The notes beneath the pieces are model-generated. The model saw only the letters and a program-made list of their open reading frames with translations. It searched no databases and was not told where the DNA came from. From Labrys wisconsinensis (GTDB lineage: Bacteria; Pseudomonadota; Alphaproteobacteria; Rhizobiales; Labraceae), in assembly GCF_030814995.1 (NCBI RefSeq), contig NZ_JAUSVX010000004.1, forward strand, positions 124,001 to 188,000: a stretch of DNA of 64,000 bases, in the 5' to 3' direction. Both the position numbers and the translations under genes were made by a program. This document shows, piece by piece, positions 39,401-45,877 of this stretch; within the stretch, counting starts at the first letter, position 1; every line of letters starts with the position of its first letter.

Positions 39401-40302
39401 ACCGCGACCTCGCCGTCGGCGCCGCGCCCGACGGCGCCGAGGTGTGGAGCTCGCCCGGCGCCTTCATGAAGGGCGTCACCGTCGGGGCGCCCCCCGATCC
39501 CTTCTCCGCCGCCGGCCAGATCTGGAACATCCCGCCGCTCGATCCCATCGCGTTGCAGGCGACCGACTATGCCCATGTCCGCGAGCTGCTGCGGGCCAAC
39601 ATGCGCCATGCCGGAGCGCTGCGCATCGACCATGTCATGGCGCTGACCCGCCTCTTCGTCGTGCCGCAGGGCGCGCCGGCGGCGCAAGGCGCCTATGTCG
39701 CTTTCCCGATGGAGGGCCTGCTCCGGGTCCTAGCCGAGGAGAGCCGGCGCGCTGCCTGCCTCGTCGTCGGCGAGGACCTCGGCACCGTGCCCGAGGGGTT
39801 CCGCGAGCGCATGGACGCGGCCGGCGCCTTCTCCTATCGCGTGCTGTTCTTCGAGCGCGACGGCTCTGCCTTCCGCCCGCCTGAGGCCTATCCGGCCCGG
39901 GCCGTCGCCTGCGTCGCCACCCACGACCTGCCGACGCTGAAGGGCTGGTGGAGCGGCGCTGACCTCGCCCTCGACCGCCGCCTCGGCCGCAGCCTGCCCC
40001 CGGAGGCCGAGGCGGAGCGGGCCGCCGAGAAGCGGGCGCTGGCCGCTGCCGTGGGGCAGGCGGACGGCGATCTCACGCCCGGGCTCGTCGGCGCCATCCA
40101 CGGCTTTCTCGCCGCTTCTGCGGCCGCGCTGGTGCTGGCGCAGGTCGAGGATCTCGCCGGTGAGGCCGAGCCCGTCAACGTGCCCGGCACCGACCGGGAC
40201 TACCCGAACTGGCGGCGCCGGCTCGACGGCGAGGCCGAGGCACTGCTGGAGACGGACGCGGCACGGGCCGTGTTCGCGGCGATGCGCGAGGCGGGCCGGT
40301 AG
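36481..40302 (+). CDS. Fused glycogen debranching enzyme GlgX and 4-alpha-glucanotransferase MalQ
   Basis: One uninterrupted frame of 1273 codons encodes two enzymes. Residues 1-680 are GlgX. They have a CBM48-like start (EPLGVTLGDDGANVAVFSAD) and a GH13 barrel with nucleophile D337 (DGFRFDLA), acid/base E373 (LAEPWD) and D444 (AAHDGF). Residues about 700-1273 are MalQ (GH77), with GLSTQLYTLR, nucleophile D1050 (LRIDHVM), acid/base E1098 (VGEDLGT) and D1149 (THDLPTL). Both catalytic sets look complete. GlgX removes short limit-dextrin side chains. MalQ would re-lengthen the released maltotetraose-type chains for GlgP. The start at 36481 is the first giving GlgX homology. The joint is an alanine/glycine-rich linker near residue 690. 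Confidence 0.93.
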   Translation: MSILPGLPEPLGVTLGDDGANVAVFSADAERIELCLFGEDGSETRLVLPDRTGDVHHGFVPGLLDGRLYGFRAHGPWRPQEGLRFNPAKLLIDPYATRLVRPEGLTSAMPGHGIEGLDDLVLDPTDTAPFVPKGVIEAPARPAAAGPVVAPGGRIVYELNVKGFTRRHPAVPETIRGTFAGLAHPAAIRHLVELGVTTVELMPAAAWIDERHLPGLGLSNSWGYNSVAFLAPDPRLAPGGMAEVAAAVAALHQAGLEVILDVVFNHTAESDERGQTLSLRGLDNRTYYRLHEDRRFYVNDTGCGHTLALDRPAPLRLVMDALRHWAGAGGFDGFRFDLAPVLGRTAAGFTPEAPLLAAIAQDPVLRGRLMLAEPWDIGSGGYRLGGFPAPWGEWNDRYRDDVRRFWRGDAAVGALATRLAGSADIFAPTHRPPSASVNFVAAHDGFTLADLVSHAGKHNEANGEGNRDGHSGEVAWNNGAEGPSQDRAVAAARARDARALLATLLVSRGTPMLGMGDELGRSQAGNNNAYAQDNETTWVDWEHADRDLVDFVRRLVALRRAQPALTEDRWLTGLAGEAGAPDVTWLAPDGGAMSAGRWNDPATRTLGMLLAPQRSAAGRVLVWLHAGGEPLSVTLPETGRSRRWRRAFGAANQPLEGDDALFSGFERAELGPRSVAVFVEEEGRGAARGGDVDPAFLDRLALLAGIAPDWWEVSGKHTLVSRDTKRALLDAMGLPSATMGQARESHERLLALRPPQASADRCFVPEALTGERRRFGLSTQLYTLRRAGDQGVGDFTTLRRLAEAAAARGAATVALNPLHAMFASDRDRASPYQPSDRRFLDPIYLDLDAVPEIAAAGGRAEAPADEASGRLVDWAGVWRRKRAVLERCFEVAQSRPDRWAAVEAFRAECGEALQRFALFQALEGETGGTDFRAADPGPATSERRRAVDFAVYLQFLADAQLARAADSGLAVGLYRDLAVGAAPDGAEVWSSPGAFMKGVTVGAPPDPFSAAGQIWNIPPLDPIALQATDYAHVRELLRANMRHAGALRIDHVMALTRLFVVPQGAPAAQGAYVAFPMEGLLRVLAEESRRAACLVVGEDLGTVPEGFRERMDAAGAFSYRVLFFERDGSAFRPPEAYPARAVACVATHDLPTLKGWWSGADLALDRRLGRSLPPEAEAERAAEKRALAAAVGQADGDLTPGLVGAIHGFLAASAAALVLAQVEDLAGEAEPVNVPGTDRDYPNWRRRLDGEAEALLETDAARAVFAAMREAGR

Positions 40303-40506
40303 GCGGGCGGCGAGGGCCCCGGCGGTGCGAGCCCCTCGGCAAGGCAGGAGTCCGACCGGTCACCCCGGCATCTGCCATCGGCCGGCGGTGGAGCACCGCC
40401 CTTCGTTCGATTTTTGTTCTTTTTCCGCCTGCCACCCCTGGTCATGCTCCGATCCGGATGCTTAGCTGATCCGCCTTGGTTTCAGCCGATGCGGGGGCAG
40501 GCTTCC
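40303..40506 (+). promoter_or_regulatory. Leader upstream of the modular protease, copied upstream of its paralogue
   Basis: From about 40408 (tttttgttcttttt, then gatgcttagctgatccgcc and cagccgatgcggggg) the sequence closely resembles the bases before the second module gene (from about 42822). Promoter, leader and coding start were therefore duplicated together. No confident -35/-10 assignment was made. Confidence 0.5.
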
Positions 40507-42774
40507 ATGTGGCGCGTTCTGGTTGTCGCGGTGTGTCTTGTTCTGTCGCTGGGGGCGCCCGCCCGGGCCGGCGATCCGCCCGGCTATGCGGAGGCGAAGC
40601 GGGCCTTCGAGGCGCTCGATCTCGAAAACCGCGTGCAGATCGAGATCCTTTTGCTGGCCGCGGGATATGCGCCGGTTACCATCGACAGCAGCTTCTCTCA
40701 GGAGCTGTTCGACGCCATCTCGAAGTTGCAGGCGGGATCGGGGCGGCGCGCGACCGGCATCATCGGCGCAGACGACGTCGATCTGCTGATCGAACGCTCC
40801 GCGCGGGTCCTGGCGAAGTGGGATCTCAAAGTGGTGACGATACCCGGCACCGAGGTCAGCGTGTTCGTCCCGTCAGGCCTTGATCTCGACCGGAAGACGA
40901 TCTTGAGAGGATGGCAATACCAAGGAAGAAAGAGCTCTCTGCAAATTCAGTTTACACATGATAGCCTGGAGTCTCTAAGATCTTATTATGATGCAGCAAT
41001 GAAATGGGCAGCAGGGAAAAAGAAGGTAAAGCTGATTGATGAGAAATTTTATCCTGCATTATTCTTTGTAGTTGCTGCGGAAAAATCAATATATATGGAT
41101 GTATGGGGAATCTGGCGTGACGGTGGCAGCGTTGTTATGTCATTCACGTACGATGCAGCTCGCAACGATTTCTTCGGTTCTCAGCTGGAGAATCTGCTGG
41201 TGGCTTCGCTCTGGGCTATGCTTCCCCCTGGAACATCACTGTCCCCTCCAGACGAGGCGTCACTCCGGCGCTTGAAGGAGCAGGTCGCGTCTCCGAGTCC
41301 TGATCGGCCGGATGCCTTGGACCAGGGCGCCGACCCACCGGGCTACGCAGGGGCGAAGCGGGCCTTCGAGGCGCTCGACGTCGAGAGCCGAAGGCAGATC
41401 GCGATCCTCCTGCTTGCGGCCGGATATGGGCCGCTCGATATCGAGGATGCGTTCTCGCGAAGGCTGTTCAACGCCATTTCCAAGATGCAGGCGGGATCGG
41501 GCTTGCCGGCCACGGGCATCATCGATGCCGGGGATCTCGATCGGCTGATCGCACGGGCGGCGCCCTTCCTGGCAAAATGGGGCTTCAGGACCGTGACCAT
41601 TCCGGGTAGCCGGCTCGGCATGTTCGTCCCGTTCGGCCTCGGCGTCGATGTGGATCCGACAGCGAGAGGCTGGCGATATGGCACTCCCGACAAGGCTCTT
41701 CAGATCGAATATTTCCGCGCGGAAAAGTCAGACCTCGGGACCATCTATTCGGAGACGCTGGGCGTCATAAACGGCCACAAGGATATTAGGATCGTTGCCA
41801 GGTTCGTCTCGGCAGAGTCTTTTCGGGTGTCGTGTCAGGTGGGCTCACGGACCGTCGACTATTGGGGCGCGATTGATCAGGACGGAGTCGTCGTGACGAC
41901 ATTTTCGTATGATCGCATGGCCAACGATTTCTTCGGAGACAGACTTGAGAACCTTATGGTGGCATCGCTGTGGAGCGAAGTGGCCGGCGAGGCGGATTTG
42001 CTTCCCACGGACGCCTCCCTCCAGCGGTTGAAGGACGCGTTCTCGCCGCAGGCGCGACCGCCAGCTCTCAAGGGGCCGGCGCCCGTCCAGGGGCCGTCCG
42101 CAGTTGTCCAGACGACGCCGCAGCCCACGGCGGACGCGCCTTCCGATGTCGGAGTTGGCACCGGCTTCTTCATCACGGCGGACGGCCACGTCCTGACCGC
42201 TGCCCATGTCGTCGAGGACTGCCGGTCCGTCAGCGTCGCCGCAACGGGGAGCGCGACGCTGTACCCCGCGCGGGTGCTGGCCCGGGATAAGGGCAGCGAC
42301 CTCGCACTGCTGGCGACCGATCTCAAGGCCTCGAAGATCGCCCGGCTACGCATCGGCGTGCGACTCGGCGAGCCCGTGGCAGCTTTCGGCTATCCATTGC
42401 CAGGCTTGCTGGCGAGTTCGGGCAGTTTCACCGTCGGCAACGTCACGGCCCTGCTCGGAAAGGACGATAGCAGCCGCGACATCCAGATCTCGGCGCCGAT
42501 CCAGTCCGGCAATTCCGGCGGGCCGGTCGTCGACGCCAGTGGCAATCTCGTCGGTGTCGTTTCCTCCGGGCTCGTTGCGGTCGGTGTGGCGTCCGAGAGC
42601 GGCGCCTCCCTGCAGAACGTCAACTTTGCCGTCAGATCCTCTGTTGCCGCCAGCTTTCTGCAGCGCAACGGCATCGCATTCCAGACAGCAAGCCTCGGCG
42701 CCGCTCTTCCGCTCACGGATCTGGCCGATGTCACGAGGTCGCTCAGCCTCTATGTCGAGTGTGAGGGCTCGTAG
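40507..42774 (+). CDS. Secreted two-module protein with C-terminal HtrA-like serine protease domain
   Basis: I start at the ATG at 40507, matching the paralogue's start (M-W-R-V/G-L-V-V-A). The product is 755 residues. A signal peptide ends APARA. Module A (26-275) and module B (279-525) each begin with a helical peptidoglycan-binding-like unit (GYAEAKRAFEALDLENRVQI, LQAGSGRRATGI) followed by a beta-rich part ending N-D-F-F-G-x-x-L-E-N-L. A proline-rich linker leads to a trypsin-like domain from 549 with H567 (TAAHVVED), D598 (GSDLAL) and S670 (SGNSGGPVV). It probably acts in the periplasm or at the cell wall. The family of the beta-rich part is not recognised. GC falls sharply within module A's beta part (40920-41160). 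Confidence 0.82.
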   Translation: MWRVLVVAVCLVLSLGAPARAGDPPGYAEAKRAFEALDLENRVQIEILLLAAGYAPVTIDSSFSQELFDAISKLQAGSGRRATGIIGADDVDLLIERSARVLAKWDLKVVTIPGTEVSVFVPSGLDLDRKTILRGWQYQGRKSSLQIQFTHDSLESLRSYYDAAMKWAAGKKKVKLIDEKFYPALFFVVAAEKSIYMDVWGIWRDGGSVVMSFTYDAARNDFFGSQLENLLVASLWAMLPPGTSLSPPDEASLRRLKEQVASPSPDRPDALDQGADPPGYAGAKRAFEALDVESRRQIAILLLAAGYGPLDIEDAFSRRLFNAISKMQAGSGLPATGIIDAGDLDRLIARAAPFLAKWGFRTVTIPGSRLGMFVPFGLGVDVDPTARGWRYGTPDKALQIEYFRAEKSDLGTIYSETLGVINGHKDIRIVARFVSAESFRVSCQVGSRTVDYWGAIDQDGVVVTTFSYDRMANDFFGDRLENLMVASLWSEVAGEADLLPTDASLQRLKDAFSPQARPPALKGPAPVQGPSAVVQTTPQPTADAPSDVGVGTGFFITADGHVLTAAHVVEDCRSVSVAATGSATLYPARVLARDKGSDLALLATDLKASKIARLRIGVRLGEPVAAFGYPLPGLLASSGSFTVGNVTALLGKDDSSRDIQISAPIQSGNSGGPVVDASGNLVGVVSSGLVAVGVASESGASLQNVNFAVRSSVAASFLQRNGIAFQTASLGAALPLTDLADVTRSLSLYVECEGS

Positions 42775-42918
42775 CTGGGAAGGCCGTGGGCGCCGCGGAT
42801 GGTGCCGGTGGAAGCGGTCCTTGATTTTTTGTTCTTTTTTACGTTTCTGGGGCCTGGCTCCCCCTGGCCCTGGCCTTGTCGGAATGCTTGGCTGATCCGA
42901 CTATGGTTCGGCCGATCC

Positions 42919-42931
42919 GGGGGGGGGGGGG
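42919..42931 (+). repeat. Homopolymer tract of 13 G before the single-module gene
   Basis: Thirteen consecutive G lie at 42919-42931, ending nine bases before the ATG at 42941, exactly where the ribosome binding site should be. The equivalent place before the paralogue has only five G (gcgggggcagg). Such tracts slip during replication and can switch expression. A sequencing or assembly artefact cannot be excluded. Confidence 0.75.
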
Positions 42932-42940
42932 CGGAGTTCC

Positions 42941-43831
42941 ATGTGGCGCGGTCTGGTTGTGGCCTTCAGTGTCGCTCTTGCGCTGGCCTCTCCGGTGCGG
43001 GCGGGCAATCTGCCCGGCTACGATGAGGCGAAGCAGGCCTATGAAGCGCTCGATGTCGAGAGCCGGTTGCAAGTCGACGTGCTCCTGTTGGTGGCGGGCT
43101 ACGGATCGATTGTGGGTGAGGTATTCTCCGAGGGCATTTTCGAAGACATTTCGAAGTTCCAGGCGGCGTCCGGGCTTCCCGTCACGGGAATTCTTGGGAA
43201 GGCGGATATCGATCGGCTGATCGAGCTGACTTCTCCTGTTCTTGCGAACCTGAAGCTGGAAGCTGTAAATTTATTCGACGGAAAAATGACTATGTGGGTC
43301 CCGTCTGGTCTGCGATTCCAGCGGATAGTAAAAGATGGTGGTACGTACTATGACAGTGAGATTGCAAAATTTCTTGTCAAAATCGCGAAGAATGAGGATT
43401 TTGATTTCAATGATTTTGTAGATTCATTTGACGTAGAGAGGCCTCAAGATAAAAAACTGAAGGCTAGATATAGAGATCGTACAGATAATTCGTTCGTGAT
43501 GCTTTGTGATATCGGAAAATATACCATGAATTATTGGGTTTATCCTAAGGGTTCCGGGTTTGTCTTGATGGAGTTCGTCTATGAGTGGAACAATCCGAAT
43601 GTGAATGCCAACCGGCTGGAGTTGTTGATGGTCCAGTCGCTTTGGGGATCGTTGGAAGGAGGGACACCGCTGTCCCTTCCCACGCAGGCATCGCTGCACC
43701 GGTTGAAAGCGCAGGTGGCGGAGCGGGAGGCGATGCTCGCTGCTCGCCCGCCGCCGTCCTTTCCGCTGCCGCCCCTGCCGCGCTTGCCTCTCGTGCCACT
43801 TCCGTCGTCTGATCCCTCCGCGTCTCCATAG
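42941..43831 (+). CDS. Secreted single-module paralogue lacking the protease domain
   Basis: The 296-residue protein has a signal peptide (MWRGLVVAFSVALALASPVRA) and one module like those in the preceding protease. The module begins GYDEAKQAYEALDVESRLQV and FQAASGLPVTGI, then a beta-rich part with YTMNYWVYPKGSGFVLMEFV and NRLELLMVQSLW. The C-terminus is proline-rich (PPPSFPLPPLPRLPLVPLP). There are no catalytic residues. The beta part (43260-43570) is markedly AT-rich although its ends are GC-rich. It may compete with or regulate the protease, or bind the cell wall. Function unknown. Confidence 0.75.
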   Translation: MWRGLVVAFSVALALASPVRAGNLPGYDEAKQAYEALDVESRLQVDVLLLVAGYGSIVGEVFSEGIFEDISKFQAASGLPVTGILGKADIDRLIELTSPVLANLKLEAVNLFDGKMTMWVPSGLRFQRIVKDGGTYYDSEIAKFLVKIAKNEDFDFNDFVDSFDVERPQDKKLKARYRDRTDNSFVMLCDIGKYTMNYWVYPKGSGFVLMEFVYEWNNPNVNANRLELLMVQSLWGSLEGGTPLSLPTQASLHRLKAQVAEREAMLAARPPPSFPLPPLPRLPLVPLPSSDPSASP

Positions 43832-43873
43832 CCCGTCGCGAGGCGGGAGCACGCCCGACAGGTCCGCTCCGGC

Positions 43874-44245
43874 ATGAAGCACGTCCGCCTCGCCACGGCA
43901 TGCCTCGTCGGCTTGCTCGGTCCCGCCCAGGCCCGCCCTGCCGATACCCTGCAGCAGCTGGGGCGCGCGCTCGAGCTCTGCCTCGGCGGCACGCGCGGGC
44001 TGCAGGGCTCGGAGATCACGGTCGTGTTCAGCCTGCGGCGCGACGGCAGCCTGCTCGGCAAGCCGCGGGTCTCCTATTCCCGGCTCCCCGGCGACCTCGG
44101 CGACCAGAAGCGCTTCGTCGCGAGCGTCGCGCAGGCCCTCGACGGCTGCCTGCCCGTGCCCATCACCGATGCCCTGGGCGGGGCGATCGCCGGCCGGCCC
44201 TTCGCGATTCGGCTGGTCATTCCGCGCAGCGACACCCCTGCCTGA
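43874..44245 (+). CDS. Small periplasmic TonB/TolA-C-like protein
   Basis: The 123-residue product has a signal peptide (MKHVRLATACLVGLLGPAQA). A compact domain follows: LELCLGGTRGLQGSEITVVFSLRRDG and GKPRVSYSR. The pattern (helix, then V-x-F-x-L-x-R-D-G-x-L-x-x-x-x-V) resembles TonB/TolA C-terminal domains. Two cysteines in the mature part (ELCLGG and DGCLPV) could form a disulphide. It follows the module gene by 42 bases and may share its transcript, but composition returns to GC-rich here. No membrane anchor is visible, so it is not a classical TonB. Confidence 0.65.
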   Translation: MKHVRLATACLVGLLGPAQARPADTLQQLGRALELCLGGTRGLQGSEITVVFSLRRDGSLLGKPRVSYSRLPGDLGDQKRFVASVAQALDGCLPVPITDALGGAIAGRPFAIRLVIPRSDTPA

Positions 44246-44374
44246 AACGCCTCCGGGCTTCGGCCGAGGGCAGGGGAGGGTGGCCGTGCGTCCGGCGGCG
44301 CGCAGGCGGCGCGCAGGCTTGCTCTCGCCGCGCCGCGCCGCCATGCTGCGCCCGAGAAAAGTCCAGGGAGCGCC

Positions 44375-45877
<1,503 letters not shown>

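What the first reader, a model, noticed from the sequence alone, without database searches (positions are those of the whole stretch)
40507..43831. Two-gene family of a repeated secreted module, one linked to an HtrA-like protease
Three copies of a roughly 250-residue module (helical wall-binding-like unit plus unknown beta domain) occur in two adjacent genes: two copies fused to a protease with triad H567/D598/S670, one free-standing. The free module could act as decoy, adaptor or regulator of the protease. I do not recognise the beta domain as a described family.
Basis: partly seen in the sequence, partly recalled or inferred. Interest (0 to 1): 0.7.

Follow-up and report, generated by a model that had tools for sequence, protein, structure and literature searches.

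The report
Wall-binding protease with fast-changing modules
Two neighbouring bacterial genes carry three copies of a secreted, cell-wall-binding-like module, two joined to a protease and one alone; the module belongs to a widespread but uncatalogued family, and here its second half has changed unusually fast while the wall-binding half stayed alike.

Summary
Gene A (40507-42774, 755 aa): signal-peptide-like start, two tandem modules, trypsin-like domain with H567/D598/S670. Gene B (42941-43831, 296 aa): one module and a proline-rich tail. The copies are 50, 36 and 39% identical, far above shuffles.

Each module is PG_binding_1 plus a ~140-residue beta domain. The beta domain has no Pfam or NCBIfam match, but AlphaFold and Foldseek give it a Mog1/PsbP/DcrB-like fold. 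A beta profile matches 123 of 397 genomes of the order. The domain sits on intact or degenerate trypsin-like domains, on TPR-caspases, or alone.

New here: the window's beta cores diverged far more than their wall-binding halves, and two of them are the only 300-bp stretches below 50% GC in the window. Like-for-like trees of both halves agree, so I read change in place, not import; one other tree disagreed.

Best reading: a wall-anchored, PDZ-less periplasmic protease whose beta domains recognise a ligand or substrate; B is a protease-free duplicate of its front part, sharing the wall site with its own specificity. No function was tested.

The parts
40507..42774 (+). Gene A, 755 aa: signal peptide, two modules, trypsin-like protease
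40507..40572 (+). Signal-peptide-like start of A (residues 1-22)
   Evidence: hydrophobic stretch followed by a small-residue site, read by eye; no signal-peptide predictor was available
40573..40821 (+). Module A1, PG_binding_1 half
   Evidence: 23.6 bits, cut-off 23; boundary approximate
40822..41253 (+). Module A1, beta domain (Mog1/PsbP-like fold)
40771..41290 (.). AT-rich stretch over the A1 beta core (merged 300-bp windows below 50% GC, minimum 0.43)
   Evidence: GC3 island at residues 134-248
41335..41580 (+). Module A2, PG_binding_1 half
   Evidence: 26.2 bits, cut-off 23; boundary approximate
41581..42012 (+). Module A2, beta domain
   Evidence: low-GC3 island here not significant
42133..42663 (+). 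Trypsin-like domain (residues 543-719), H567, D598, S670
42220..42762 (+). C572 (42220-42222) and C752 (42760-42762), a conserved cysteine pair, disulfide inferred
   Evidence: kept in 33 of the 38 complete trypsin-like domains
42861..42940 (+). Leader of B, similar to the leader of A (40435-40506)
   Evidence: blastn 68% over 368 columns, running from the leader into the PG half
42941..43831 (+). Gene B, 296 aa: signal peptide, one module, proline-rich tail; no protease
   Evidence: no protease remnant in 43700-44400
43007..43252 (+). Module B, PG_binding_1 half
   Evidence: 21.4 bits, just below the cut-off of 23
43253..43684 (+). Module B, beta domain (Mog1/PsbP-like fold)
43101..43730 (.). 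AT-rich stretch over the B beta core (merged 300-bp windows below 50% GC, minimum 0.38)
   Evidence: GC3 island at residues 97-204

Best explanation
Gene A encodes a periplasmic, peptidoglycan-anchored trypsin-like protease. Two PG_binding_1 domains hold it on the cell wall. Two beta domains of Mog1/PsbP-like fold, in front of the catalytic domain and instead of the PDZ domains that HtrA proteases carry behind it, recognise a protein or other ligand and so choose or gate what is cut. Gene B arose by duplication of the front of this gene (leader, signal peptide, module) without the protease. It goes to the same place, shares or competes for the wall site, and presents a beta domain of different specificity, so it most likely acts as a non-catalytic partner of the same system (competitor or adaptor). 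Shown by computation: the anatomy, the predicted fold, the duplication, the faster change of the beta cores, and the same module on other proteases elsewhere. Inferred: export, wall binding, protease activity, ligand recognition by the beta domain, and any action of B on A.
For: PG_binding_1 and Trypsin_2 with the triad. Signal-peptide-like starts in both genes. The predicted fold is shared with PsbP, DcrB, the Eag chaperones and Tsi3, of which the Eag chaperones bind partner proteins (passages in PMC7773334). The module occurs with two unrelated protease types, trypsin-like and caspase, as a recognition or docking part would. 22 of 38 complete trypsin-like domains have lost the triad but keep the cysteine pair, so binding without cutting seems to be kept. 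Protease-free copies also exist in L025 and L126. The beta cores changed far more than the anchoring halves.
Against: No activity, binding or interaction was tested. PG_binding_1 in B is below Pfam's cut-off (21.4 of 23 bits). The fold models rest on three related rows; B reaches only pLDDT 69.9. Best TM-scores are moderate (0.60 to spinach PsbP 2vu4, normalised by the target), and the DcrB and Eag matches have rmsd near 10 A. The AT-rich, fast-changing cores would also fit relaxed selection. No conserved pairing of a free module next to a module-protease gene was found elsewhere; in G071 the two lie on different contigs.
Confidence: 0.45

Rival explanations
1. B is a drifting duplicate. The front of gene A was copied without the protease and now changes under relaxed selection; the AT-rich beta cores reflect AT-biased mutation in a weakly constrained segment, and B has no regulatory role.
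For: B has the longest beta branch (3.14), lower GC and GC3 than A, and PG_binding_1 below cut-off. Low GC3 together with fast protein change fits loss of constraint.
Against: B keeps an open frame, a signal-peptide-like start and a predicted fold of the same kind. The same AT-rich fast core is found in A1, inside a gene with an intact protease, while PG halves stay alike. The C-terminal end of the module is also better kept than the core.
Confidence: 0.3
2. The beta cores of A1 and B were brought in by recombination from a low-GC source, so the genes are mosaics.
For: Sharp local GC drop in two of three copies. A 71-row beta tree places the B core with L012, L126 and L127, apart from A1/A2 (99/90). 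On the PG half alone, grouping B with those three is not rejected (p-AU 0.069).
Against: With the same 28 rows (chosen by me) and one fixed alignment, the PG-half and beta trees both give ((A1,A2),B) at 98/97 and 99/96. In one search the B branch is very long (3.39) and the tool warns that its place is unsure. No match of B in the plasmid collection.
Confidence: 0.1
3. The pair works as a toxin-immunity-like system: A is a secreted antagonistic protease and B, whose beta domain has the fold of the immunity protein Tsi3, protects the producer.
For: Fold match to Tsi3; adjacent genes; fast change, as in conflict systems.
Against: Most members are single genes with no neighbouring free module in the loci read; many have degenerate proteases; no secretion-system marker was looked for or seen near the genes; PADLOC gives only generic protease matches for A and none for B.
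Confidence: 0.07

Closest known systems
HtrA/DegP and MarP-type trypsin-like proteases (NCBIfam TIGR02037, NF033740)
   Same: Trypsin-like catalytic domain with H/D/S; best partial matches of the catalytic domain among NCBIfam models and to HtrA-type structures.
   Different: No PDZ domain found; far below the family cut-offs (85.3 of 416.2 and 74.9 of 250 bits); wall-binding and beta modules in front instead.
Mog1/PsbP/DcrB fold proteins (PsbP 2vu4, DcrB 6e8a, Eag chaperones, Tsi3)
   Same: Predicted fold of the beta domain: strands, helix, strands, helix.
   Different: About 10-20% identity in the fold alignments; no Pfam model of these families matches; fused to PG_binding_1 and proteases.
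L012 (G004, same genus), single-module protease gene
   Same: Signal-peptide-like start, one PG_binding_1 + beta module, trypsin-like domain with intact triad and the same cysteine pair; protease 50% identical.
   Different: One module only; no free module among its neighbours in L074; different neighbouring genes.
Serine proteases of Sinorhizobium fredii NGR234 (WP_240545259.1) and Methylosinus sp. C49 (WP_161915326.1)
   Same: Related trypsin-like domain, 43 and 45% identity.
   Different: Other N-terminal part of about 400 residues, without the module (no hit of the module or beta profile; no Pfam match).

Membership tests
HtrA/DegP (Do) family | Trypsin-like catalytic domain with H/D/S triad | tested here: met
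   Trypsin_2 94.5 bits; triad columns
HtrA/DegP (Do) family | PDZ domain after the catalytic domain (feature recalled) | tested here: not met
   No PDZ match in Pfam at E up to 10
HtrA/DegP (Do) family | NCBIfam TIGR02037 score cut-off 416.2 | tested here: not met
   85.3 bits
MarP family | NCBIfam NF033740 score cut-off 250 | tested here: not met
   74.9 bits, catalytic domain only
PG_binding_1 (PF01471) | Score above Pfam's cut-off of 23 bits | tested here: met
   A1 23.6, A2 26.2; B 21.4, just below
PG_binding_1 (PF01471) | Binds peptidoglycan | not testable with these tools
   needs a sacculus pull-down
Mog1/PsbP/DcrB superfamily | Fold | tested here: met
   By prediction only: Foldseek probability 1.00 to PsbP and DcrB from two models; models share the same three rows
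Mog1/PsbP/DcrB superfamily | Match to the Pfam sequence families of that fold | tested here: not met
   None listed; beta profile against PDB sequences best E 0.7, unrelated
PG_binding_1 + beta module family (named here) | Both halves matched by one profile in other genomes | tested here: met
Secreted protein | Sec signal peptide | tested here: inconclusive
   Hydrophobic start and small-residue site by rule of thumb; no predictor at hand

The most novel reading that the evidence does not exclude
The beta core is a hypervariable recognition domain carried by wall-anchored proteases, pseudoproteases and caspases. In this genome tandem copies have diversified it while the anchoring halves stay alike, and the protease-free copy is a matched decoy or self-specificity factor. 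It would be a cell-wall surveillance module with variable ligand binding.
Probability: 0.15. Interest if true: 0.8.

Novelty: new variant of a known kind. Interest (0 to 1): 0.5.

Why it matters
It gives the unknown beta domain a predicted fold and a family: widespread, uncatalogued, and attached to secreted proteases of two unrelated types as well as to degenerate ones. Why bacteria keep wall-targeted pseudoproteases and exported caspases is open, and a shared recognition module would be a handle on it. The window's array is a natural case in which anchor and recognition halves can be told apart by their rate of change.

Tried and rejected
HtrA membership: rejected for lack of PDZ and low scores. 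Import of the beta cores: one tree pointed to it, like-for-like trees did not; kept as a rival. Synonymous divergence as a sign of gene conversion (identical codons at shared residues 0.59 in the PG half, 0.38 in beta, permutation p 0.0054): set aside, because GC3 differs between the halves and the largest differences among the control pairs all involved a window row. Defence-system reading: PADLOC gave generic protease and caspase matches and none for B. Plasmid origin of B: no match at E 0.01. L030 looked like a free module, but its contig ends inside the gene; not counted. SPOR as a further wall domain: below cut-off in one of seven proteins scanned (15.5 of 21 bits). Synteny: the best glycerol kinases of the four other genomes of the genus are 47-50% identical to the window's, and the 1.5-kb flanks of those four (L150-L153) match none of the four window neighbours searched, so the age of the insertion is open. 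The genome-contig scan gave three loci that match protease residues only. A sigma-70 scan found no promoter-like site in 40250-44400, and two terminator-like sites, both inside gene A and fewer than in shuffles.

Paper searches that listed no description of this module: (listings seen; passages read only in PMC7716261, and PMC7773334). They cover the held open-licence library only.

The import rival was raised from 0.07 to 0.1 because the first text left out the p-AU of 0.069.

Full report
Observation. Gene A runs from an ATG at 40507 to 42774 (755 aa) and gene B from 42941 to 43831 (296 aa), both on the + strand, 166 bases apart. The module repeats are real: 117/234, 86/236 and 89/229 identities for A1-A2, A1-B and A2-B, scores 533, 346 and 342 against maxima of 56, 54 and 54 in 500 shuffles. 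The leader and signal peptide of B also resemble those of A, so B looks like a copy of the front of A with its upstream sequence. No protease remnant was found in 43700-44400, after B.

What the parts are. Pfam gives PG_binding_1 and Trypsin_2 in A, and PG_binding_1 just under the cut-off in B. The beta part has no Pfam or NCBIfam family match (weak partial hits such as WG_beta_rep at E 0.05-0.12 are far below cut-off). A 44-row beta profile found no PDB sequence better than E 0.7. AlphaFold on three window rows gave pLDDT 81.9 and pTM 0.79 for A1, 69.9 and 0.66 for B. Foldseek matched both to PsbP, DcrB, Eag chaperones and Tsi3 with probability 1.00; the best target-normalised TM-scores to PsbP are 0.60 and 0.59 (2vu4), while DcrB and Eag alignments have rmsd near 10 A. 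The two models share the same three rows. The order of elements fits the Mog1/PsbP fold (layout recalled). Members of that group have diverse functions and may be tied to membrane complexes, according to passages of PMC7716261.

Distribution. A four-row module profile matched 38 of 199 genomes of the order at E 1e-5, some by the PG half only. The beta profile matched 123 of 397 genomes of the order at E 1e-6 and 55 of 398 of the phylum at E 1e-5, two of them outside the class. These counts include small beta proteins without PG half; 14 such frames were read, one of them matching only to position 90 of 142, and the eight that were scanned had no Pfam match better than E 0.2. Among 41 proteins scanned, the two window genes included, 41 hit PG_binding_1 and 37 Trypsin_2 at E up to 1. 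In one search, 68 of 82 frames held PG half plus beta (window B not among them; at least six cut by a locus or contig end; some are near-copies), and window A alone had two modules.

Partners of the module. In two other genomes of the genus, module genes stand in a row beside a helicase gene (RecD2-type by Pfam in G002, the only one scanned): in G002 module + degenerate trypsin, module + TPR + caspase, TPR + caspase without module, and module + TPR + caspase; in G004 module + degenerate trypsin, module + TPR + caspase, and a further module gene that was not scanned with Pfam. The window genome has a module + degenerate trypsin gene beside a similar-sized, unscanned helicase-like gene, and a caspase + Sel1 gene about 2 kb further on. 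L126 has a weak SH3 match (19.7 bits, cut-off 27) and no protease match. L025 is a module alone, sister at 100/99 to a module-protease gene of its genome. The profile match of L025 runs across its TGA stop near the end of the module, so it may be a shortened gene; no protease remnant was found in the 14 kb around it.

Catalysis. Of 41 rows, 16 keep H, D and S, 22 do not, one is cut by a contig end and two have no protease (counted by eye on one global alignment). The pair C572/C752 is kept in 33 of the 38 complete ones, among them all 22 degenerate ones; the five without it are intact ones. The fold seems retained where activity is probably lost.

History. The whole-module tree (51 rows) joins A1+A2 (99/83) and then B (100/99), in a group with L012, L022, L126 and L127 whose inner fork is weak (84/80). 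On this tree the copy that gave B is older than the internal copy in A. PG-half and beta trees on the same 28 rows agree (98/97 and 99/96); tip lengths are 0.22, 0.22 and 0.45 for the PG half and 1.62, 0.67 and 3.14 for beta (A1, A2, B). Against this: a 71-row beta tree put B with L012, L126 and L127 (99/90), and for the PG half that grouping is not quite rejected (p-AU 0.069). I chose the 28 rows.

Composition and rate. GC3 of PG half minus beta averages 0.00 (sd 0.059, maximum 0.151) in 73 other modules, some of them duplicates; in the window it is 0.39 (A1), 0.30 (B) and 0.12 (A2). Low-GC3 islands cover residues 134-248 of A and 97-204 of B and exceed all 200 shuffles; the one in A2 does not. 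All 57 of 6371 windows of 300 bp below 50% GC lie in 40771-41290 and 43101-43730. Among pairs of similar PG-half identity none had beta identity as low as the window pairs (0 of 36, 85 and 56); these pairs are not independent. The simplest reading is rapid change of the beta cores in place. Whether that is specialisation or relaxed constraint cannot be told from one genome.

Mechanism. The most likely reading is a wall-anchored, PDZ-less periplasmic protease with recognition domains of Mog1/PsbP-like fold, and a protease-free copy of its front part acting at the same site. Anatomy and history are computed; export, wall binding, cleavage, ligand binding and A-B interaction are inferred. The family's degenerate proteases and caspase members suggest that the module serves recognition or docking rather than one kind of catalysis.

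Verdict. The beta domain is new as a sequence family and known as a fold. New variant of a known kind, interest 0.5.

Noticed in passing
window 42919-42931: A run of 13 G just upstream of the start of gene B (start at 42941), the only G or C run of 8 or more in the window; it could vary in length and alter B's expression.
   Followed up: partly
L073 4914-13828 (G002) and L075 2318-9480 (G004): Row of module genes beside a helicase gene, several with TPR and caspase domains: caspases that carry the PG_binding_1 + beta module.
   Followed up: partly
L112-L122, L124, L125, L128: Small proteins that consist of the beta domain without PG half, seen in several families of the order and in two genomes outside the class (L117, L119); no Pfam family in the eight scanned.
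   Followed up: partly
L126 1341-2432: Module followed by a weak SH3 match instead of a protease.
   Followed up: no
window 43874-44245: Open frame of 123 aa with a signal-like start after gene B; no Pfam or NCBIfam match at E up to 10.
   Followed up: no
L159 322-2184 and L160 271-2157: Plasmid-borne relatives of the protease with a different N-terminal part of about 400 residues without Pfam match; its start recalls SPOR-like domains by eye only.
   Followed up: no
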